Assembly: GCA_028279065.1 (NCBI GenBank)
Contig: JANQSY010000006.1
Coordinates: 1 to 44,349, forward strand
DNA: 44,349 nucleotides
Direction: 5' to 3'
Origin: Cytophagales bacterium
GTDB taxonomy: Bacteria > Bacteroidota > Bacteroidia > Cytophagales > CCMP332
Shown: positions 32,783 through 44,349 of the stretch, piece by piece
Layout of the letters: every line of letters begins with the position of its first letter
Position numbering within the stretch: position 1 is the stretch's first letter
Program-made: the position numbers and the translations under genes
The notes under the pieces: model-generated
Seen by the model: the letters and a program-made list of their open reading frames with translations, nothing else
What the model was told of the DNA's origin: nothing
Database searches by the model: none

Positions 32783-35700
32783 TTATGGTCTAAATCCGTC
32801 GTCATCATCATCTCCCCAATCATCCTCTTCTACATCTTCCGGAACAACAATGGGCTTCTTCTTGTCATCCTTTTTCTTCTTTTTGTCGTCTTCCTTTTTA
32901 GGGTCTTTCTCTTTGTCTTCCTTTTTTGCTTCTTCCTTTTTAGGGTCCTCTACCTTTTCTTCTTTTTTGACTTCCTCCTCTTTTTTAGGTTCCTCTTCAG
33001 GTTTGGAAATGATCACAGGCTTTTCCTCCTCATCTTCTTCACCCCAGCCATCATCCCAACTATCTTCCTCATCTTCCTCAGGAACCACGATCGGATCCGA
33101 TTTTTGTTCCTCCTCTTTTTTGGGCTCCTCTTTGACTGGTTCTTCTTTTACCGGATCCTCTTTTGGTTTTGAAATAATTACTGGCTTCTCCTCTTCATCC
33201 TCTTCACCCCAATCATCTCCGCCCCAACTGTCCTCTTCGTCATCCTCAGGAATAACAATCGCTTTCTTTTCTTCCTTCTTTTCATCTTCCTCGAAGAAAT
33301 CATCTTTTTCAATTACCTCTTCTTTTGGTTCTTCCTTTTCCTCTTTTGGTTGGGATATTATTATTGGCGCCTCCTCCTCAATTTCTTCTTCATCATCTAG
33401 GTATTCCTCTTCATATAGGTCCTTATTTTTCTCCGCTTCCTTTGCTTCCTCTTTTGGCTGTGTTATTATCACAGGTTTTTCTTCTTCATCTTCCTCTCCC
33501 CAGTCGTCACCACCCCAGCTATCCTCCTCATCATCTTCCGGAACGATGATTGCCTTTGTCTCTTCTTCTTGCTTGTTGATCATTATCGGATCCTCCTCTT
33601 CGATTTCTTCTTCTTCATCAAGATATTCCTCTTCATATAGATCCTTGTTTTTCTCCGCTTCCTTTGCTTCCTCTTTGGGCTGAGAAATAATCACTGGTTT
33701 TTCTTCTTCATCTTCCTCTCCCCAGTCGTCGCCACCCCAACTATCTTCTTCATCATCTTCGGGAACGACAATTGGCTTTGTCTCTTCTTCTTTTTGCTTG
33801 TTGATTATTACCGGAGCCTCCTCTTCATCTTCCTCAAATCCAAAAGGATCCACAACCTCCTCCTCATCTTTTTCCTGAACTTCTTCTTTTTTATTGATTA
33901 TCACAGGAGCATCCTCTTCGTCTTCTTCAAAGCTGAAAGGATCATCCTCTTCCTCTTGCTGCTTTTGCCCACCAATTATTGCAGGTTCTTCTTCCTTATC
34001 CTCTCCCCAGTCATCATCCCAGGTATCTTCCTGAACAGGATAATAATCCTCTTCCTTGGGTTTCTTCTCCTTTTTTTCTTTTGGTTCTCGTTGCTTTTTC
34101 TCCTTTTTCTTCTTTTCCTTTTTTGAAGGAGGAGGCGCACCATAATAGTCGTCATATCCGGATTCCTCCTCAGCACCCCAGCCATCATCTTCCTCATCTG
34201 CGCCCCAACCATCGTTTTCTTCCTCATCTGCGCTCCAACCATCATCATCTTCAATTTCAGTATCTTCTACCGGCTTTTCGACCTCAGAAGATTCTCCAGC
34301 CTGGCCTGCAGCAGCACCTGCAGCAGCTCCACCAACAACCGGGATCTCAGATTCATCCTCTTCCGTTTCGTCCCCCCAACCATCATCATCGCCAAATTCG
34401 TCATCAGCCCAATCATCATCTCCATTCCATTCGTCATCGTAATAATCGTCATCGTAATCCTTTTCCTTTTTCTGATCAGCCATAATACCGGATTCAAGTT
34501 CAGGCTGCTTGACCTTCAGGTCCAGATCATCTTCGGTGATATTGTTGTTGAGATAGGTATTGTTGAAATGAGTGATGTATTCCAAGACCTCATATTGGGT
34601 GGCCAAAGCAAGTTCAATTTCGCCTTCTTTGACGGCCCCATCGCTCTGTTTTCCCTGTATAATGTCGTTATAGACATAATTGGAAGAGAATGTCCTCATG
34701 ATACCATCAGCATAGGATAAATAATACCAGGAATCGTCCATGAGACCCACGTAAAAGTTAACCGTAGAGCCGTTATACCCCTTCCTGATCTCCAGATACG
34801 TGTTGACTCTGGAGTTAATGTCGTTTTTAAGTATCGATGCAAGGCCGATAGTGTCATAATTGTAAAAAGCATTTTCATCTTTATGCCACGCGAATTTCAG
34901 ATCAGCCAAGAGAATCCCTTTCGCCAATTTGGGACTGGCCATGAACAAAGGCAGGTACTCCATGTAGAGCTGTTCTTCAAAATTGTCTGCTCCGGTTTCT
35001 CCAAGGAATTGTGCGAGGCGATTATACTGAATACCAGGATCAGCTAGTGCTTCATAGAGATCCACATATTCAGTGCTTTCGGAGAGTTCCTTGCCCATTT
35101 CGTTCAGGGCTGAATTCGGGATGGGGAAATTCAAAATGGATAGGGTTTGGAAGGTGTAATTCGCACTATCGATGTTAGCCCTTCCCTCACCTACAGACAC
35201 CATATCCATGAATTCATCTCCTGCAAAGGAAAACTCCCCTTCAAACTCAATATTAGAAAGTGAATCATCGTAGGTAAATAGATTACCTTCAATTGTTCCC
35301 TCTTCTATTTTCTTTCTGTCCCCCATTTCAAATTTCCCTTCTTCAGGGTTTACCCCGAGAAGACCCAATGATTTGAAAACATCGTCGTCTTCATCAAAGC
35401 GCTTTGCTGAAAGGAAGGTGTAGTAAAGCTCCTCTTCGGCAGGATCATAGTGTAAGCCAGTGGTCAGATACAGGGCTTCATCTTCCTCATTCTTGGGCTC
35501 TTCAATTTCAATGACAATATCATTTGGGTCACTGCTCCACTTGAACGGCAACCAATCATTGAACTCATCCGAATGCCTGAGGTCAAGCCTTATCTCACCA
35601 TCAAATCGGAGGAATTCTTCATTCGCATATACATCAACTGCCCCCTGAAAAATGATCTTTGGAGATATATAAAAATTGTCTTCGGGGAATATCTCACTGA

Positions 35701-38700
35701 GGCCAATGGTGACCGTATCAATTTCCTTCCTCTTAAAGCCGGTTTGCTCCTGGTGCAGACCTTCAAAGATGACATCCATGGTATCTCCTGATCCATTGTC
35801 GTATTTATAAATGGCATCGGCATCAAACTCTTTCGCGGAGAAGATCTCAACGCTTGCGTCGGTCAGGTAATGATACTGCCAATCATAATCCATTATAATG
35901 CTTGCATCTTCCAGTGGCTCGATCTCCCCTTCCTCAGATATAATCAATTCTCCATCACCCGGAATGATATTGGCATCAGCAACATAGATATTCGGAACAC
36001 CTGAGGCGTTGAGTCTGCCGGACTCCACGTCATAAACCGCTGAATCTGCACTAAAAGCTAAAGAATCAAGTTCAGGGTTTGTGGAATAGAAATATGAGTC
36101 CTCTATATCGATCTCATTCGGTTTGGACATCGTGAACATATGCGTTTCCAGATCCCACACTCCAACAGGAATAGAGGTCTTCATCTGAAGAATTGGCATT
36201 TCGAGTGAGGCTGCACCCTTTTCCGGTTCAACCCTTGCTGTGTTCTCCAGGAAATCAAAGGTCATTTTTACATCCACCGCCATTAAGCCTGGAAGTCGGC
36301 TGTAGTCGGTCTCCAATTTGAACTTGGAGTTGTGCCCAACGAAACTATGTTCTTCGAACAAATAATTTTTGGAGAAGGTCTTTGTGGAGGTCGTTTCCAC
36401 TATCCCCCTTCCCTTCATCCCGGAGGTGGTTACGATCCCTGTTCCGTCAAGCATTGCTATCCCATCATACAATTCGATCTCCTCCTTCTTGCTTCGAACA
36501 AATAGTTCTTGGGTCTTAGGTTTAAAAGCCGCAGTGAAATCACTGGTCGTCTTTGCATGAGGAAAGGAAATACCATCAAAATCACCCTGGGCCACTTCAA
36601 ATTCCCCATTATTAATGAACATGGAGTCTTGATAGAACACGAAGGTGTCGCTGTCAACCAATGCGGCCATGAAGGTCAGGAATCCTGTGGCTTGCAGGCC
36701 ACCCCGATCCAGAGATAGATTTTCATAGATCTTCGCCGAACTTCCATAGATCTCAAAGCCATCATCGGGGATCTCATAATCAAATCCAAGGGAGAGGTCT
36801 GGCATAACCACCAACTTGGTCTCAATATCCGGGATCATTCCACCTGAGTGGAATACCCCCTCTAAATGGACAACATTGGGATTATCACTCTCTACGGAAT
36901 CGATCCTAAAACTGGGGATCTCAAAATAAACCTCCTTGTTGTAAGTCCCGCCCAATACATTTGGTCCATCGAAATAGACATAGGTAGGTGACGAGATATC
37001 GAGTATTGGATATTGAGGAAGACTTTTAAGACCGGATTTATTATCGATCTCGTTCAGGTAAAGAGTGCCGGCCGTATTTTTTATGGAACCACCAAGGATC
37101 TGCTGAGAAGAAGTCTGTCCTGTAGAATCATCAGAAATAGTAAAGTTGATCGAATCCAGGTGATTGATCTTGAAAAGGAAACTATTATAGTTAAAATCAA
37201 AATCCTTACCCACGATCTCATAGTTACCTGCTATCACCCTTCCATCGAAGGTAAAGTCCCTGCCCTTATAGATCTTAACAAGCCCGCTATCAGGCATAAA
37301 ATAAACACCGAGGCCCTTGGAAACGATCTCCCGATGAACTCCATAAACATAAAAGATACCTGAATCAAGGTCGATGTAGCCGTTGCGTCCTGTGGGTACG
37401 ACACTATAGATCTCCAGGTTATCATAGTCCTCTTTCCTATGTCTGGATTTGAAAGAGTGCTTGGTCTTTTTGGTTACAGTGATCTCACCCGTGAACCTAT
37501 CAAAATCAATATATCCTTTACCTGCGATCCCAACCATTGCCCCCAGGACAATTTTGGGATCCTTCTTATACCTTGATGCTACTTCCCGATAATTAAAACT
37601 GGTAAGCTTCTTTTTCTTCGAGTAATCATAGACCATATTTATCGGATTGAAGCCATATAGACTTCTCATCCTGTCATACTCCTGATCATCAAAAATTTCG
37701 TCGGAACGCACCTTCATGGGTGCTTCAGACCTTCCGGACATTATTCCGAAATGGACCTGGTTATCCCCGAGAGTATACCATACCTTATCTCCAACAATCT
37801 CAAGACGATGGTAAGAATCCATCATTGGAAGATACTTGTTCGGGCCTCCGGGCCAATACAATTTTATCGTAAGATCATCCAGCCCATATTCAAATTCCAT
37901 CTCCTTGTGTGTAAGGGAATCTTCAAACAGATAGAATTTCACATTTGCCTTCTTTGCTCTTACCACAGAATCGATGAGGTAATATCTTTTCGAACTGGAG
38001 ACAAGGACTGTTTTGCCTTCATAGCTGACCTTCATTTCACTGGGCATTCCATTCATTGAAGCTGAATGGATGGTCTTTCCTACGAGGTTGAACCCTCCTT
38101 TGAAATCAACTTCATCGCTTATGGTCTTATACTGATAGTTGCTGCCATATGAATGGAATCTTGGATATTTCTTACCACCCTTTTTCTTTCCAATCGATTT
38201 AAATGTATAAACCCCTTCAATCGGATCATCAAAGAATTCCGGGTAGTTGATCTTAGAATTCTCTGAAGAAAACCCGGGCCTGGAGACAGGGAATTCATAG
38301 TTCCCAAGCTCAACATAAACATCTTCCTCAAATCCATGCTTCTCCCAGTTCATCGTTCCGCCAGAGCCTGAATACCTTTTTTGAAATACACCAAGATTTC
38401 CACTAGTCCCCAAAATTGAGGTGGTGTCATAAGGAGTCTCGATTAGAAAATCCGCATCTTCAATTACGATCTTTGGCCCAGTATATTGGATCGCTTCTTC
38501 TTCATCGGAGCCAAAATCCAGGATATTGACATCCGATTCGTCATAGTTAGCATCGCTTTCATTATCATCATAATCCTCCCAAAAACTATCATCATCATAG
38601 TCTGCATCATCCCCCCAAACATCATCCTCAAAATCTTCATTGAACGTGGTATCATCATCTGCAACCTGCTCTTCTTCATAATCCTCCAAAAGCATATCCG

Positions 38701-39229
38701 GTGCGTAATCCGATTTATCCTCTTCATAGGCAATGGAAATACTCCCTGTTTCCATTATTACCTTGGAATTTTTCCCATAGAAAAGGGCGTTGTACTTGAA
38801 AAGATTAGTACAGGTTTTGAAGAATTGGAGGATCCTAGGACCTGATGTACTTGTCCTTACGATTTCTTTCGTGGCACCAAGGAACTCTGAAACTCGCTCG
38901 GATGAGGTATGGTCACCATTGTTGATATAGTAAAGGGCTCTTGTAAAGGATGAAAGGTAAGGCCTAACTCCCATTCTCCTGTGAAGCATGGTTTCGACCA
39001 CTTCTTTTGCCAATTCCTGCTGTTCCGTGGATAAGTCAAACCAAGAAGCAGAGAGGTCAAAGCCATTGGTATCGATAGCTCCACTCCTCCTCAGAATATC
39101 ATCGGCGTAATCAGGATAGTCTAATTCTTCTTGCTCCTGGACCCCCAAGGAGTCACCGAAACCCTGCGAATAGGAGTTATTGGCCAAAAAGACCAACAAG
39201 AAAAACGCTATGATTGACCTCCAAAACAC
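32783..39229 (-). CDS. Giant secreted protein with acidic Trp-containing repeats, unknown function
   Basis: A 2148-residue protein that I do not recognise. A signal peptide (residues 1-21, ending SYSQ) implies export. Residues ~25-175 are helical; ~180-250 form a first acidic, Trp-bearing segment (EDDVWGDDADYDDD). Residues ~250-1570 are beta-rich with recurring 'D/Y-x-x-S/T-G-x-f-x-x-x-G' strands, e.g. DLDSGIFYVYG and YDVESGRLNASGVPNIYVADANI, the latter reminiscent of OstA/LptA-like beta repeats. From ~1580 to the end it is extremely acidic and lysine-rich, with WG/DDWG motifs and near-identical 74-residue tandem units. No C-terminal T9SS sorting domain is seen; it ends DDDDGFRP. The start is GTG immediately after the prmA stop. 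No frameshift is evident. Confidence 0.88.
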   Translation of the reverse strand: MFWRSIIAFFLLVFLANNSYSQGFGDSLGVQEQEELDYPDYADDILRRSGAIDTNGFDLSASWFDLSTEQQELAKEVVETMLHRRMGVRPYLSSFTRALYYINNGDHTSSERVSEFLGATKEIVRTSTSGPRILQFFKTCTNLFKYNALFYGKNSKVIMETGSISIAYEEDKSDYAPDMLLEDYEEEQVADDDTTFNEDFEDDVWGDDADYDDDSFWEDYDDNESDANYDESDVNILDFGSDEEEAIQYTGPKIVIEDADFLIETPYDTTSILGTSGNLGVFQKRYSGSGGTMNWEKHGFEEDVYVELGNYEFPVSRPGFSSENSKINYPEFFDDPIEGVYTFKSIGKKKGGKKYPRFHSYGSNYQYKTISDEVDFKGGFNLVGKTIHSASMNGMPSEMKVSYEGKTVLVSSSKRYYLIDSVVRAKKANVKFYLFEDSLTHKEMEFEYGLDDLTIKLYWPGGPNKYLPMMDSYHRLEIVGDKVWYTLGDNQVHFGIMSGRSEAPMKVRSDEIFDDQEYDRMRSLYGFNPINMVYDYSKKKKLTSFNYREVASRYKKDPKIVLGAMVGIAGKGYIDFDRFTGEITVTKKTKHSFKSRHRKEDYDNLEIYSVVPTGRNGYIDLDSGIFYVYGVHREIVSKGLGVYFMPDSGLVKIYKGRDFTFDGRVIAGNYEIVGKDFDFNYNSFLFKINHLDSINFTISDDSTGQTSSQQILGGSIKNTAGTLYLNEIDNKSGLKSLPQYPILDISSPTYVYFDGPNVLGGTYNKEVYFEIPSFRIDSVESDNPNVVHLEGVFHSGGMIPDIETKLVVMPDLSLGFDYEIPDDGFEIYGSSAKIYENLSLDRGGLQATGFLTFMAALVDSDTFVFYQDSMFINNGEFEVAQGDFDGISFPHAKTTSDFTAAFKPKTQELFVRSKKEEIELYDGIAMLDGTGIVTTSGMKGRGIVETTSTKTFSKNYLFEEHSFVGHNSKFKLETDYSRLPGLMAVDVKMTFDFLENTARVEPEKGAASLEMPILQMKTSIPVGVWDLETHMFTMSKPNEIDIEDSYFYSTNPELDSLAFSADSAVYDVESGRLNASGVPNIYVADANIIPGDGELIISEEGEIEPLEDASIIMDYDWQYHYLTDASVEIFSAKEFDADAIYKYDNGSGDTMDVIFEGLHQEQTGFKRKEIDTVTIGLSEIFPEDNFYISPKIIFQGAVDVYANEEFLRFDGEIRLDLRHSDEFNDWLPFKWSSDPNDIVIEIEEPKNEEDEALYLTTGLHYDPAEEELYYTFLSAKRFDEDDDVFKSLGLLGVNPEEGKFEMGDRKKIEEGTIEGNLFTYDDSLSNIEFEGEFSFAGDEFMDMVSVGEGRANIDSANYTFQTLSILNFPIPNSALNEMGKELSESTEYVDLYEALADPGIQYNRLAQFLGETGADNFEEQLYMEYLPLFMASPKLAKGILLADLKFAWHKDENAFYNYDTIGLASILKNDINSRVNTYLEIRKGYNGSTVNFYVGLMDDSWYYLSYADGIMRTFSSNYVYNDIIQGKQSDGAVKEGEIELALATQYEVLEYITHFNNTYLNNNITEDDLDLKVKQPELESGIMADQKKEKDYDDDYYDDEWNGDDDWADDEFGDDDGWGDETEEDESEIPVVGGAAAGAAAGQAGESSEVEKPVEDTEIEDDDGWSADEEENDGWGADEEDDGWGAEEESGYDDYYGAPPPSKKEKKKKEKKQREPKEKKEKKPKEEDYYPVQEDTWDDDWGEDKEEEPAIIGGQKQQEEEDDPFSFEEDEEDAPVIINKKEEVQEKDEEEVVDPFGFEEDEEEAPVIINKQKEEETKPIVVPEDDEEDSWGGDDWGEEDEEEKPVIISQPKEEAKEAEKNKDLYEEEYLDEEEEIEEEDPIMINKQEEETKAIIVPEDDEEDSWGGDDWGEEDEEEKPVIITQPKEEAKEAEKNKDLYEEEYLDDEEEIEEEAPIIISQPKEEKEEPKEEVIEKDDFFEEDEKKEEKKAIVIPEDDEEDSWGGDDWGEEDEEEKPVIISKPKEDPVKEEPVKEEPKKEEEQKSDPIVVPEEDEEDSWDDGWGEEDEEEKPVIISKPEEEPKKEEEVKKEEKVEDPKKEEAKKEDKEKDPKKEDDKKKKKDDKKKPIVVPEDVEEDDWGDDDDDGFRP
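33351..33790 (-). repeat. Tandem 222-bp coding repeats (74 residues each)
   Basis: Two nearly identical units lie in the tail of the giant gene; the landmark CAGTCGTC occurs at 33501 and 33723, exactly 222 nt apart. Each encodes PEDDEEDSWGGDDWGEEDEE, then EKPVII, a KEEAKEAEKNKDLYEEEYLD block and an INKQ/ISQP-type linker. Shorter degenerate copies of the PEDDEEDSWGGDDWG motif recur nearer the C-terminus, around 33208-33262, 33042-33093 and 32801-32855. Boundaries are approximate. Confidence 0.85.
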
Positions 39230-41165: not shown

Positions 41166-41223
41166 AACCTTATATCAAGGGGCCTAAATTAGTAATTTTG
41201 CAGGCCGAATATTTGAAAGCTTC

Positions 41224-42411
41224 TTGATAGAAATAAAACCATATCACCCAACCAAAAAAGAAAAAGCAATCCTTGTATCGCTGATCATGCAGTCGGATTC
41301 AGCCCTTGAGGTTAGGGAGCATTTAGAGGAGCTCAAAGAACTCGCAAGGACCTCAGGCGCTGACACACTTAAGGTTTTCACCCAAAAGCAATCAAGTCCT
41401 GATACAAGGACTTATGTGGGGAGCGGGAAATTTGAGGAGATCAAGGAGTTCGTAGAGGAGAATAAAATTGATGCGGTGATCTGCAATGATGATCTTACTC
41501 CTACTCAGGTGCGTAATCTTGAATCCGGCTTGAAATGCAAGATCCTGGATCGCAGCCTCTTAATCCTGAACATCTTTTCGATGCGCGCTAAGACCGCCCA
41601 GGCAAAATCCCAGGTTGAGCTGGCTCAATACGAGTATATTCTTCCAAGATTGACCAGGATGTGGACTCACCTCTCCAAGCAAAAGGGGGGGATAGGTATG
41701 AGAGGGCCCGGTGAAACAGAACTGGAAACGGACCGAAGGATAGTAAGAGACAAGATCTCATTGCTCAAGAAAAAATTGGAGAAGATCGAAAAACAAAGCT
41801 TCACCCAAAGAAAGAATAGGAGCAGAATGGTTCGTGTGGCTTTGGTGGGTTATACCAATGTTGGAAAATCGACTTTGATGAAGGTTTTATCCAAGGAAAA
41901 GGTGCTGGCCGAGGATAAGCTTTTTGCAACAGTTGATTCTACGGTCAGAAAGATTGTTTACCATGGTTTTCCATTTCTTCTGACCGATACCGTTGGGTTC
42001 ATCAGAAAACTCCCAACGACTTTGATCGAATCCTTTAAGTCCACCCTTAATGAGGTAAGAGAGGCAGATATTCTTCTTCATGTGGTGGATCTTTCTAATC
42101 CCAATTATGAGGAGCAGATGGAGACGGTTGACAAGACCCTTTTGGAGATCGGTGCTGGTGATAAACGTGTGATAAGGGTCTTCAATAAGATCGACGCATA
42201 TCATCATGATCCTGAGGACCGGCCTTTCGATGAGGATAGTTCGGTGTCACTGGAAGATCTAAAGAAGTCATATCTAAATGGAAGCAGGGCGGTTTTTATT
42301 TCGGCAAAGGATAAGACCAATATGCAGGAATTAAGGGATGTGTTGCTTGAGCAAGTACAGGAAGTACACTACTCAATATTCCCAAACTATTTGCCTTCAG
42401 GGGCCAATTGA
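41224..42411 (+). CDS. hflX: GTPase HflX
   Basis: A 395-residue ribosome-associated GTPase that splits stalled or hibernating ribosomes under stress. The HflX N-terminal domain (KAILVSLIMQSD ... DTRTYVGSGKFEEIKE ... CNDDLTPTQVRNLE), the helical linker RGPGETELETDRR, and the G domain (G1 GYTNVGKST near 210, G3 DTVGF, G4 FNKID, G5 SAKD) are all present. The TTG at 41224 is needed because the first strand KAILVSL precedes any Met. Length is slightly short at the C-terminus, as usual in Bacteroidota. Confidence 0.95.
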   Translation: MIEIKPYHPTKKEKAILVSLIMQSDSALEVREHLEELKELARTSGADTLKVFTQKQSSPDTRTYVGSGKFEEIKEFVEENKIDAVICNDDLTPTQVRNLESGLKCKILDRSLLILNIFSMRAKTAQAKSQVELAQYEYILPRLTRMWTHLSKQKGGIGMRGPGETELETDRRIVRDKISLLKKKLEKIEKQSFTQRKNRSRMVRVALVGYTNVGKSTLMKVLSKEKVLAEDKLFATVDSTVRKIVYHGFPFLLTDTVGFIRKLPTTLIESFKSTLNEVREADILLHVVDLSNPNYEEQMETVDKTLLEIGAGDKRVIRVFNKIDAYHHDPEDRPFDEDSSVSLEDLKKSYLNGSRAVFISAKDKTNMQELRDVLLEQVQEVHYSIFPNYLPSGAN

Positions 42412-42444
42412 TTTAGTTTTGCAATCCCATTAGCCTATGGCCTC

Positions 42445-42472
42445 GGCCGCCGTCGCCAAGGCTTTGGCGGCC
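42445..42472. repeat. GC-rich nested palindrome
   Basis: GGCCGCC (42445-42451) and GGCGGCC (42466-42472) are perfect inverted arms, and inside lies CGCCAA-ggct-TTGGCG. It lies 33 nt after hflX and has no T-tract, so it is not a standard terminator. The right arm runs into the partial tRNA copy. Confidence 0.6.
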
Positions 42473-42483
42473 TCGTAGTTCAA
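42469..42483 (+). repeat. Decayed 5' fragment of the tRNA-Arg gene
   Basis: GGCCTCGTAGTTCAA here is identical to the first 15 bases of the intact tRNA-Arg at 42592-42606; TGG follows in both after one inserted base. The remainder of a tRNA is not recognisable. It is followed by a hairpin with a T-run at 42503-42524, as the intact copy is. Confidence 0.6.
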
Positions 42484-42502
42484 GTGGGGGCACACCGTGT
42501 AG

Positions 42503-42524
42503 AAAACGTCCAGTGGACGTTTTT
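42503..42524 (+). terminator. Terminator-like hairpin after the tRNA fragment
   Basis: AAAACGTCC and GGACGTTTT are perfect 9-bp arms around a 3-nt loop, ending in a five-T run. It could end hflX transcripts or be the relic terminator of the decayed tRNA copy. Confidence 0.55.
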
Positions 42525-42591
42525 GGGTGGGAGCCAGGTTGCAGGGAAGGGGTTGAAAGTCCGGAATAAGTTACCGGTGTTTGATTTTATT

Positions 42592-42663
42592 GGCCTCGTA
42601 GTTCAATGGATAGAATAGGAGTTTCCTAAACTCTAGATACAGGTTCGATTCCTGTCGAGGCTA
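42592..42663 (+). tRNA. tRNA-Arg (anticodon CCT)
   Basis: The 72 nt fold as a full cloverleaf. Acceptor GGCCTCG pairs with CGAGGCT (one G-U at the end); the D arm is GTTC/GAAT; the anticodon stem GGAGT/ACTCT holds loop TTCCTAA with anticodon CCT at positions 34-36; the T arm is ACAGG-TTCGATT-CCTGT. Discriminator A at 42663 follows and CCA is not encoded. The anticodon reads AGG arginine codons. A terminator lies 12 nt downstream. Confidence 0.93.
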
Positions 42664-42675
42664 CGACGAGACAGC

Positions 42676-42706
42676 AAAAAGTCACCCCAAAGGGTGGCTT
42701 TTTTTG
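42676..42706 (+). terminator. Rho-independent terminator of tRNA-Arg
   Basis: A stem AAAAAGTCACCC / GGGTGGCTTTTT with loop CAAA, one mismatch, then further Ts to GTTG. It lies 12 nt after the tRNA. Confidence 0.85.
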
Positions 42707-42758
42707 TTGCAGAGCAACTACGGAATCGAAGTCTATGCCGGCGAATGCTGGTAATGAA

Positions 42759-42771
42759 TGTCGAGGCTACG
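42759..42771 (+). repeat. Decayed 3' fragment of the tRNA-Arg gene
   Basis: TGTCGAGGCTACG here is identical to 42653-42665, the end of the T stem, the acceptor 3' strand and discriminator of the intact tRNA. Weaker similarity continues upstream (GCTGGTAATGAAT against the T arm). It is followed by its own hairpin/T-run. Confidence 0.6.
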
Positions 42772-42786
42772 CAGTAGATGAGAAAG

Positions 42787-42815
42787 AAAGCCTTAACGCC
42801 TGGTGGGGCTTTTTT
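42787..42815 (+). terminator. Terminator-like hairpin after the tRNA 3' fragment
   Basis: AAAGCC (42787-42792) pairs with GGCTTT (42807-42812) and is followed by a T-run. It matches the arrangement after the intact tRNA, which supports an old tandem duplication. The rest, to 42955, holds nothing I can identify. Confidence 0.6.
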
Positions 42816-42955
42816 GTGCGAAGTATTTGGGACTTTTTACGTGAAAAGATCTTTGGTTGTTTTATGAACAGTTTAGAGCGAAACAAGGCCTTATTATTTC
42901 CAAATCTCCAGCATATTGTTGGAGAAAGGAGATTTCAAAAAATTTATTCTTGCTT

Positions 42956-43258
42956 TTAAGAAGCAACACTATACGCTTTCAATCCAATAATCAACATTAA
43001 CGAAATAAGAACTAAAAGGAGATATGTGGATGCTTTGAAATAACCATTTGGCCAACCTCTGATTAGGTAAAATATGAAAGAACTTATCAAAGGAAAAATC
43101 AGAATAACCAAGGCAATTCCCAATGATCCCCCAATGTATCCTCCAATATTACTCAATACGGAATCGGTTGGAGGAAAATTAATTTCATGCGTAAATGCGC
43201 CCACAATAAAGCTTACGCCAATCGTAATCCAAATAGCAGTTTTTGAACCTTTATCCAT
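42956..43258 (-). CDS. Small three-helix membrane protein, unknown
   Basis: A 100-residue protein I do not recognise. Three hydrophobic segments are apparent: ~8-22 (AIWITIGVSFIVGAF), ~42-66 (GGSLGIALVILIFPLISSFIFYLI) and ~76-95 (STYLLLVLISLMLIIGL). An acidic/Pro loop (THEINFPPTDSVLSN) lies between the first two. The ATG overlaps the previous stop as TAATG, so it is coupled to the gene at 43258-43866. The region is visibly AT-richer than the rest of the window, suggesting different ancestry. Confidence 0.7.
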   Translation of the reverse strand: MDKGSKTAIWITIGVSFIVGAFTHEINFPPTDSVLSNIGGYIGGSLGIALVILIFPLISSFIFYLIRGWPNGYFKASTYLLLVLISLMLIIGLKAYSVAS

Positions 43259-43866
43259 TATTGTTCAATTAATATCTCATCAAACATCCTAAATAAAAAT
43301 CCCATTCGTACATCGTCATAATCAGCTAATACCATTAACCCAAAACAATATTGACCATCGGTATACAACTTGACTCTAAGCATATGGTCAATTTCATTTA
43401 TTCTAACAGTCGCTCTAGCCGAGACAGACTCTAAGCTAAAGTTTGGTTCCTCAGTTCTTATGTTAAGATTGAATAATTCTACATTTTCCCTATCCTCGGG
43501 CATTTTTTTAATTGGTTCCAAGAACAAATTCAAATTTTCTTCAGCAGAGTAGGTGATAAACTTTGTCAATTGATATTCAACAACAGAGATTGCAAATTGG
43601 TCGTCTCCACCTGTCCAATATGCATAGTTTTTAAAAAGAGTACGATTAAAATCAATAGGGGCTCTTCTGACCTCAATTTTTGGTGGAAAAAGAACTGATC
43701 CCCTATCAAATTTTTTCCTTTTCCAGTTACCCCGGTAGAAAACTTCATTTTCTTGCTCTAAAGCTTTTTTCGTTGAACAAGATCTAAAAGAATCTACTAT
43801 CACTAACGCCACACATATCAAAAAAATGAAGCCACCTATTGTCTTTAAGAGTGTTTTATTATCCAT
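43258..43866 (-). CDS. Membrane-anchored protein of unknown function
   Basis: A 202-residue protein I do not recognise. With the ATG at 43866 it begins with MDNKTLLK and a single membrane helix (~9-25, IGGFIFLICVALVIVDSF), followed by a soluble domain of ~170 residues outside the membrane. That domain is mixed alpha/beta with YAYWTGGDDQFAISVVEYQLTKF and a terminal DDVRMGFLFRMFDEILIEQ helix. Cys near 30 lies just after the helix and is not in a lipobox. An upstream in-frame ATG at 43899 adds 11 residues. It is translationally coupled to the three-helix protein, so the pair may form a complex. Confidence 0.7.
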   Translation of the reverse strand: MDNKTLLKTIGGFIFLICVALVIVDSFRSCSTKKALEQENEVFYRGNWKRKKFDRGSVLFPPKIEVRRAPIDFNRTLFKNYAYWTGGDDQFAISVVEYQLTKFITYSAEENLNLFLEPIKKMPEDRENVELFNLNIRTEEPNFSLESVSARATVRINEIDHMLRVKLYTDGQYCFGLMVLADYDDVRMGFLFRMFDEILIEQ

Positions 43867-44030
43867 CGAACCACTGAAAGTAGACAAAATTCTTGTCAAA
43901 ATTTATCCTAATTGATTTATCCCGGTCTGATTCGAGTCATTGATAAGTTTAATACAGCAACTTTGAGTTAATTGAAAGTCAATAAGAGAAAAGGTCCTCT
44001 TGTCCCACCTTATGACCCAGCGCTTGGATG

Positions 44031-44065
44031 AAAAAAGCCCCACCCTACAATTATAGAATGGAGCT
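44031..44065 (-). terminator. Second terminator, end of the duplicated rRNA-operon tail
   Basis: On the minus strand AGCTCCA (44065-44059) pairs with TGGGGCT (44042-44036), allowing one G-U, with a short inner CTA/TAG pairing, and is followed by a six-T run. It lies downstream of the 5S-tail fragment at 44087-44111, in the same order as the primary terminator relative to the real 5S. Confidence 0.7.
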
Positions 44066-44086
44066 AGATACTGCGACCAAGTCGAA

Positions 44087-44111
44087 GGACAAGTATTAAG
44101 CGGCGGCGACC
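44087..44111 (-). repeat. Duplicate of the 5S rRNA 3' end and trailer
   Basis: These 25 bases are identical to 44248-44272, which include the last ~11 nt of the 5S gene (GGTCGCCGCC on the minus strand) and the following AATACTTGTCC trailer. The copies are 161 nt apart. The downstream trailer hairpin is perfect after the real 5S (CCTCCGA-cctga-TCGGAGG) but decayed here (CGAC-ttg-GTCG). Confidence 0.85.
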
Positions 44112-44112
44112 A

Positions 44113-44179
44113 CTGAAGGAGTGCAGAGCACCCTTCAGGGCTGTGAAGTGTGCGACTTTAGGGAGCTCTACTTCACAGC
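44113..44179. repeat. Two adjacent strong hairpins in the rRNA tail
   Basis: Hairpin one: CTGAAGG(A)GTGC (44113-44124) pairs with GCACCCTTCAG (44128-44138), an 11-bp stem with one bulged A and a 3-nt loop. Hairpin two: GCTGTGAAGT (44140-44149) pairs perfectly with ACTTCACAGC (44170-44179) around a 20-nt loop. They occupy the place where a second 5S body would be expected, but are not 5S-like. Neither has a T-tract. Confidence 0.7.
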
Positions 44180-44193
44180 TAAACCGGATACAT

Positions 44194-44224
44194 AAAAAAA
44201 CCCAGGCCACTTTCGTAACCTGGG
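44194..44224 (-). terminator. rRNA operon terminator
   Basis: On the minus strand the stem is CCCAGG-TTAC, a GAAA tetraloop, then GTGG-CCTGGG (10 pairs with two G-U), followed by a seven-T run. It lies about 38 nt after the 5S 3' end. Confidence 0.9.
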
Positions 44225-44261
44225 CTAGCTCCTCCGATCAGGTCGGAGGACAAGTATTAAG

Positions 44262-44349
44262 CGGCGGCGACCTACTCTCCCGGCTTTAGGCCAGTACCAT
44301 CGGCGCTGGAGGGCTTAACTTCTCTGTTCGGAATGGATAGAGGTGGATC
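44262..44349 (-). rRNA. rrf: 5S ribosomal RNA, 3' portion
   Basis: Reading the minus strand, the sequence has the 5S hallmarks CCATTCCGAACAGAGAAGTTAAG, then CAGCGCCGATGGTACTG and GGGAGAGTAGGTCGCCGCC at the 3' end. The 5' ~25 nt are beyond the window edge. The exact 3' end (about 44262) is set from the conserved GUAGGUCGCCGCC. 16S and 23S would lie beyond the window. Confidence 0.95.

What the first reader, a model, noticed from the sequence alone, without database searches (positions are those of the whole stretch)
42956..43866. AT-rich two-gene cassette between tRNA and rRNA relics
Two coupled genes (TAATG) encode a single-pass protein with an outer domain and a three-helix membrane protein, both unrecognised. 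The stretch is AT-richer than its surroundings and lies between a tRNA with flanking fragments and a rearranged rRNA tail, both typical insertion points. It may be an acquired small membrane system (stress, immunity or toxin-exclusion role possible but unsupported).
Basis: partly seen in the sequence, partly recalled or inferred. Interest (0 to 1): 0.5.

Follow-up and report, generated by a model that had tools for sequence, protein, structure and literature searches.

The report
Orphan gene pair between RNA loci
Two small coupled genes for membrane proteins with no detectable relatives sit in a spot that holds a different gene in the closest available genome, and the odd RNA-gene fragments on either side are not scars of their arrival but repeats of a kind described in E. 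coli.

Summary
Genes A (43258-43866, minus, 202 aa) and B (42956-43258, minus, 100 aa) overlap by one base (TAATG), are AT-rich (GC 34-35% against 43.5% for 29 window ORFs) and have no Pfam, PHROGs, NCBIfam or PADLOC family and no convincing relative in the genome, viral and plasmid searches (A in phages too).

In the one congener held, the same flanks (hflX, tRNA-Arg, 5S/23S rRNA) enclose an unrelated 713-aa gene and A/B are absent. This is a lineage-restricted orphan pair in a variable slot. Defence, immunity or toxin exclusion is neither supported nor excluded.

The 'relics' are not insertion scars of this cassette: both recur in the congener beside other cargo. Copies of tRNA ends flank many tRNAs of this family (5' end upstream 18 of 79, 3' end downstream 15 of 79), and 9 of 11 exact 3'-end copies lie between two terminators. 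That is the anatomy of E. coli tRNA-linked repeats (TLRs), including the rRNA version with a structured segment between dual terminators. TLR-like elements in this lineage are the more interesting result.

The parts
43258..43866 (-). Gene A, 202 aa: one N-terminal hydrophobic helix and about 160 residues of soluble domain, fold unassigned
   Evidence: no family
42956..43258 (-). Gene B, 100 aa: predicted three-helix membrane protein, start overlaps the stop of A (TAATG)
42778..44098 (.). Slot with no nucleotide similarity to the congener; there a different gene lies between the same flanks
41224..42411 (+). hflX-type GTPase gene, shared left flank (84% protein identity in the congener)
42592..42664 (+). 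tRNA-Arg(CCT)
42469..42483 (+). 15-nt copy of the 5' end of tRNA-Arg, upstream of the gene
   Evidence: also in the congener (19 nt)
42676..42703 (+). First terminator-like hairpin after tRNA-Arg (coordinates from the script's offsets)
42759..42771 (+). 13-nt copy of the 3' end of tRNA-Arg (12 nt in the gene plus one base), between two terminator-like hairpins
42784..42815 (+). Second terminator-like hairpin, after the tail copy (coordinates from the script's offsets)
44259..44349 (-). 5S rRNA gene, cut by the contig end; shared right flank
   Evidence: congener
44199..44226 (-). Terminator 1 of the rRNA operon
44112..44182 (-). Double hairpin between the two terminators, also at the congener's rRNA end and behind tRNA-Asn in the own genome
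44063..44111 (-). Copy of the 5S end with its downstream flank (49 nt, 88% identical to 44224-44272)
44036..44065 (-). Terminator 2 of the rRNA operon

Best explanation
A and B are a lineage-restricted, probably acquired two-gene operon for a small membrane complex: A is held by one N-terminal helix and carries a soluble domain, B is its co-translated three-helix membrane partner. The operon lies in a variable slot beyond the second terminator of an rRNA operon, on the same strand as it, and faces the tRNA-Arg gene. The flanking 'relics' are not scars of its insertion but older TLR-like elements (a copy of the mature RNA's 3' end between two terminators). Shown: the ORFs, the overlap, the composition, the lack of relatives in the sets searched, different cargo in the congener, and the repeat/terminator anatomy. 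Inferred: that A and B are translated, that they form a complex, that they were gained rather than lost elsewhere, and an accessory role.
For: ORF length and coding frame; TAATG overlap; GC and GC3 far below 29 window ORFs and 74 other frames; absence from G001 and G002 and from all other genomes sampled, beyond weak chance-level matches; same flanks with an unrelated gene in G001, and that gene is absent from G000 but for its common sorting tail; tail copies and dual terminators also in G001 and at other tRNAs.
Against: Only one congener is held, at 93% completeness in 470 contigs. No recombinase or mobile gene lies in the slot and no donor is known, so transfer is inferred from composition and absence alone. 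The slot's non-coding DNA is AT-rich too, which could be local mutation rather than origin. No transcript, protein or interaction is known; no promoter stands above shuffles.
Confidence: 0.55

Rival explanations
1. A/B are old family genes that diverged fast and were lost in G001 and G002; nothing was acquired.
For: Only three genomes of the family were available, and rapidly changing membrane proteins can escape single-sequence searches.
Against: Strong composition shift; a different gene in the congener's slot; nothing in 390 order, 395 class and 395 phylum genomes above weak matches.
Confidence: 0.2
2. A/B are a defence, self-immunity or toxin-exclusion pair: A's domain senses or binds an incoming toxin or phage component at the membrane and B blocks or transmits.
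For: Small, AT-rich, orphan, membrane-bound, variable location: a general resemblance only, recalled.
Against: No PADLOC model up to E 5, no PHROGs family below E 0.1, no defence gene seen beside it in the slot.
Confidence: 0.12
3. The ORFs are not functional genes, or are newly arisen from AT-rich spacer DNA.
For: No relatives found; B's length is within chance (75 of 2000 shuffles); no promoter signal above shuffles.
Against: A's length is beyond 2000 shuffles and both frames score best of six; one-base overlap and clean hydrophobic patterning.
Confidence: 0.1

Closest known systems
ORFans in clusters of acquired genes (Cortez, Forterre and Gribaldo 2009, PMC2718499; outline and one section read)
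   Same: Short genes without relatives and with atypical composition; that paper reports 96% of 8,428 ORFans as atypical in composition.
   Different: Here only two genes between two stable-RNA loci, with no integrase or other mobile gene in the slot.
tRNA-linked repeats (TLRs) of E. coli, with rrA, rrB and rrF between dual rRNA terminators (PMC8144298; introduction and passages read)
   Same: A copy of the 3' end of the upstream tRNA or 5S rRNA, lying between two terminators, with a structured segment; present in some rRNA copies of a genome and not in others.
   Different: Another lineage; exact tRNA-tail copies of 12-24 nt instead of 18-19; copies of tRNA 5' ends upstream as well; a double hairpin shared between a tRNA and an rRNA locus; no transcript known.
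PsbP_2 (PF18933)
   Same: Similar length; cyanobacterial PsbP appears at rank 50 of a very poor model's fold list.
   Different: No profile similarity above shuffled sequence.

Membership tests
[quoted passage not shown] coli) | tested here: inconclusive
   Present for tRNA-Arg and 5S and exact at the 3' end for 11 of 79 tRNAs, but the exact tRNA copies are 12-24 nt, and only 13 nt beside this finding.
tRNA-linked repeat (TLR) | Second terminator beyond the repeat, as at rrnA, rrnB and rrnD | tested here: met
   5S: two terminators here and in the congener, one at the own second rRNA copy. tRNAs: 9 of 11 exact copies with a terminator-like hairpin before and after.
tRNA-linked repeat (TLR) | Transcribed and processed small RNA | not testable with these tools
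   Only predicted folding: z -5.2 for the 71-nt double hairpin here, -7.7 behind tRNA-Asn, -1.7 in the congener.
tRNA-linked repeat (TLR) | Sequence relationship to the E. coli elements | not tested
   No E. coli element was fetched; the Rfam gathering-level scan of the window gave only tRNA and 5S.
PsbP_2 (PF18933) | Profile similarity | tested here: not met
   hhalign score 14.9; 36 of 300 shuffled sequences and 3 of 30 window-protein segments reach it; 8 family members left out in turn score 58-292. No Pfam match for A.
Known or candidate anti-phage defence system | Match to a PADLOC model | tested here: not met
   None for A or B up to E 5.
Integrative element or genomic island | Flanking direct repeats created by integration of this cargo | tested here: not met
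   The tail copies lie in the congener around another gene, so they predate this cargo; each copy is beside its own RNA gene, and no repeat was found joining both ends of the slot as direct repeats of 13 nt or more.
Integrative element or genomic island | Integrase or other mobility gene | tested here: inconclusive
   No other ORF over 74 aa in the slot, but the contig ends in the 5S gene and the rest of the window was not scanned for recombinases.

The most novel reading that the evidence does not exclude
In this family many stable-RNA genes carry TLR-like elements: echoes of the mature RNA's 3' end (and, upstream, of its 5' end) with dual terminators and conserved hairpins, releasing small RNAs as at E. 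coli rRNA operons, by independent origin or very old inheritance. The DNA beyond the second terminator serves as a landing slot where orphan genes such as A/B are gained.
Probability: 0.3. Interest if true: 0.6.

Novelty: new variant of a known kind. Interest (0 to 1): 0.35.

Why it matters
The gene pair is one more orphan operon, useful mainly as a clear case of different cargo at one spot in two species. The flanks matter more: PMC8144298 says that the TLRs, known since 1978, had no known function before that paper proposed small RNAs for three of them. A second, distant lineage in which many tRNAs carry end copies, often between two terminators, gives an independent comparison for whether such repeats are processing signals, small RNAs or duplication debris.

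Tried and rejected
Family searches for A and B gave nothing usable: Pfam, PHROGs (best E 0.11), NCBIfam, PADLOC, PDB sequences for A (one chain at E 0.6-0.9). Pfam listed two chance matches for B at E 0.7-0.8.

Weak genome matches were judged chance. A: one (E 0.0036), four (E 0.03-0.044), four (E 1.7e-4 to 0.01). The ORFs around the four were read: the best lies in a run of ~310-aa paralogous ORFs, and I saw no B-like partner beside any. B: 33 other genomes (E 0.0024-0.05), not read one by one.

Structure: A's model is poor (mean pLDDT 38.5), so its Foldseek list (260 matches, none at E <= 0.001) and VIA list (best Z 7.0, a designed protein; NTF2-like, cystatin-like and lipid-binding chains at Z 5-6) decide nothing. 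PsbP at rank 50 and a recalled likeness prompted the PsbP_2 test, which failed. B's model gave 30 matches, none at E <= 0.001.

Scripts with errors: one search read minus-strand loci on the wrong strand and is discarded (redone). One search did not turn minus-strand tRNA genes, so its tRNA total is replaced; its rRNA lines and window coordinates stand. For one search, of 22 PF18933 matches listed, five (L151, L152, L154, L155, L156) were left out beforehand and L147 fell out by length, leaving 16. The first tail-copy count had an unmasked upstream side; one search masks neighbouring tRNAs on both sides and is the one quoted.

tRNAs dropped before the count: one search lists 37, 25 and 33 tRNA matches for G000, G001 and G002; 36, 17 and 26 were examined (the weak C48 match of G000 and 8 and 7 of the others were not fetched or not called by ARAGORN).

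The 14-nt inverted repeat 42802-42815 / 44031-44044 was considered as ends of a mobile element; both arms are parts of two separate terminators, so this was rejected. Promoter scan: 4 sites against 4.1 expected.

Papers: searches for tRNA-end fragments and for orphan genes at tRNAs (81) gave nothing used; one (tyrT) listed PMC8144298; one listed PMC2718499; 'tRNA-linked repeat' is held by 2 papers (93; the second seen only as a listing); 'rtT RNA' gave 6 papers seen only as a listing, mostly on Rett syndrome (94). The library holds open-licence PMC papers only.

Full report
WHAT IS THERE. The window is a whole contig (G000:C34) of a 3.6-Mb draft genome in 191 contigs. No tool named the organism; a Bacteroidota-type bacterium is inferred from the secretion sorting domain common in these genomes (PF18962; the taxonomic link is recalled). 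Gene A (43258-43866, minus) and gene B (42956-43258, minus) are as described, with a TAATG overlap. A's length is not reached in 2000 dinucleotide shuffles of the slot; B's is reached in 75 of 2000; both frames score best of the six on the codon usage of 17 window ORFs. GC is 0.337 and 0.350 and GC3 0.300 and 0.297, against 0.435 +/- 0.020 and 0.448 +/- 0.043 for 29 window ORFs of 150 aa or more. Among 74 long frames from other pieces of the genome, 0 are as AT-rich as A and 2 as AT-rich as B. The shift is real and includes the non-coding sides (0.360, 0.372).

RELATIVES. Neither protein has a family in Pfam, PHROGs, NCBIfam or PADLOC. Whole-genome searches gave only the window itself a convincing score: 98 relatives for each protein; for A 395 genomes of the class, 395 of the phylum and 390 of the order; for B 395 of the class. 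These samples overlap, and B was not searched in the wider order or phylum sets. Weak matches are listed under Tried and rejected. Pattern scans of genome contigs and viral contigs confirmed nothing; nor did plasmids (17, 51) or phages (18, A only). These scans reach close relatives only. Distant homology stays untested because no alignment could be built.

PROTEINS. A has one clear N-terminal hydrophobic stretch, then about 160 residues predicted as mixed helix and strand in a model too poor to use (mean pLDDT 38.5). Basic residues lie on both sides of the helix, so the side the domain faces is not settled and 'outer domain' is not established (read from the sequence). B is predicted as three helices (mean pLDDT 71.8), the first the least hydrophobic. 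A guess that A's domain is PsbP-like was tested and not supported.

THE SLOT. The only congener held, G001 (hflX 84% identical in protein), has the same order: hflX, tRNA-Arg(CCT), cargo, then 5S and 23S on the opposite strand. Its cargo is a 713-aa gene with a C-terminal secretion sorting domain (PF18962) and GC 0.429. A and B are absent from G001 (93% complete) and from G002 of the same family. The reverse holds too: all 22 matches of G001's cargo in G000 lie in its last ~120 residues, the common sorting tail (best E 2.3e-7). Nucleotide similarity covers 41222-42777 and 44099-44349 and nothing between. In G002 the tRNA-Arg lies about 4 kb beyond hflX, and no 5S was found in the 11 kb fetched. 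So the borders are shared in the genus and the content is not. At this distance (74% nucleotide identity over the hflX side) unconstrained DNA may no longer align, so the block ends cannot be read as exact junctions.

THE 'RELICS'. Both are in the congener around other cargo, so they are older than A/B. I examined 79 distinct tRNAs of three genomes of the family (36 of 37, 17 of 25 and 26 of 33 listed). A direct copy of at least 11 nt of the gene's first 30 nt lies within 400 nt upstream in 18 (7, 5, 6), and of its last 30 nt within 400 nt downstream in 15 (6, 4, 5). Controls in the same call: 5' end downstream 0, 3' end upstream 2, middle of the gene 1 upstream and 2 downstream, inverted copies of any part 3 in all. 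Sixteen of the 18 start exactly at the tRNA's first base and 11 of the 15 end exactly at its last. These are not 79 independent cases: the same tRNA carries copies in more than one genome (Arg-CCT in both congeners; the tail of one tRNA-Met in all three). Nineteen tRNAs from 400 kb each of two order relatives (13 and 6) showed no correctly sided copy and one wrong-sided one; a third 400-kb stretch held no tRNA. That outgroup is small.

ANATOMY LIKE TLRs. Of the 11 exact 3'-end copies, 10 have a terminator-like hairpin before the copy and 9 have one before and one after; 10 of 68 tRNAs without such a copy have two terminator-like hairpins within 300 nt, a similar but not identical measure. At the window's rRNA operon the order on the minus strand is 5S, terminator 1 (44226-44199), a double hairpin (44182-44112), a copy of the 5S end with its flank (44111-44063), terminator 2 (44065-44036). 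The congener has the same order. The genome's second 5S copy (C151) has one terminator and no second copy of the 5S end in the stretch fetched. The double hairpin recurs behind tRNA-Asn in the same genome (C19). It folds better than shuffles here (z -5.2) and behind tRNA-Asn (-7.7) but not clearly in the congener (-1.7, 13 of 200 shuffles as good). Over the three copies 27 pairs are predicted, 7 with changes on both sides; with three sequences this is suggestive only. PMC8144298 (introduction and passages read) describes TLRs in the same terms: 18-19 bp identical to the 3' end of the upstream tRNA or rRNA, and in rrnA, rrnB and rrnD a small-RNA gene between dual terminators. I call the elements TLR-like and do not file them as TLRs: the copies vary in length, no transcript is known, and homology to the E. 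coli elements was not tested. The upstream copies of tRNA 5' ends are not in what I read of that paper and remain unexplained.

HOW IT PROBABLY WORKS. A and B are most likely co-translated and form a small accessory membrane complex, from an operon that starts beyond the second terminator of the rRNA operon and runs toward the tRNA-Arg element. No evidence found says what the complex does. Defence, immunity and toxin exclusion are possible, as for any orphan membrane pair, and get 0.12 together.

VERDICT. Observation confirmed. Interpretation half right: accessory status supported, insertion-scar reading not. The pair is an ordinary kind of orphan cassette. The TLR-like flanks, which the one paper I read describes in E. 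coli and relatives (paper searches: open-licence PMC only), lift the interest somewhat.

Noticed in passing
window 42469-42483 and 42759-42771; L077, L079, L082, L094, L104, L108, L110, L010, L116, L120 and others: Copies of tRNA 5' ends upstream (18 of 79) and 3' ends downstream (15 of 79) of tRNA genes in three genomes of the family, mostly ending exactly at the mature ends. The upstream 5' copies have no explanation so far.
   Followed up: partly
window 44112-44182; L045:1240-1310; L010:4358-4425: A double hairpin with varying, still pairing stems, at the rRNA ends of both congeners and behind tRNA-Asn in the own genome; relative to the RNA gene its order is reversed at tRNA-Asn.
   Followed up: partly
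L010:1657-1948 (congener G001): Three successive tRNA-Arg tails (the gene and two copies), the first two followed by nearly the same terminator unit: a small tandem array.
   Followed up: no
window 32783-39229 (minus): A 2148-aa frame without a Pfam match at E 0.001, with strong GC and AT skew at 32.5-34.5 kb.
   Followed up: no
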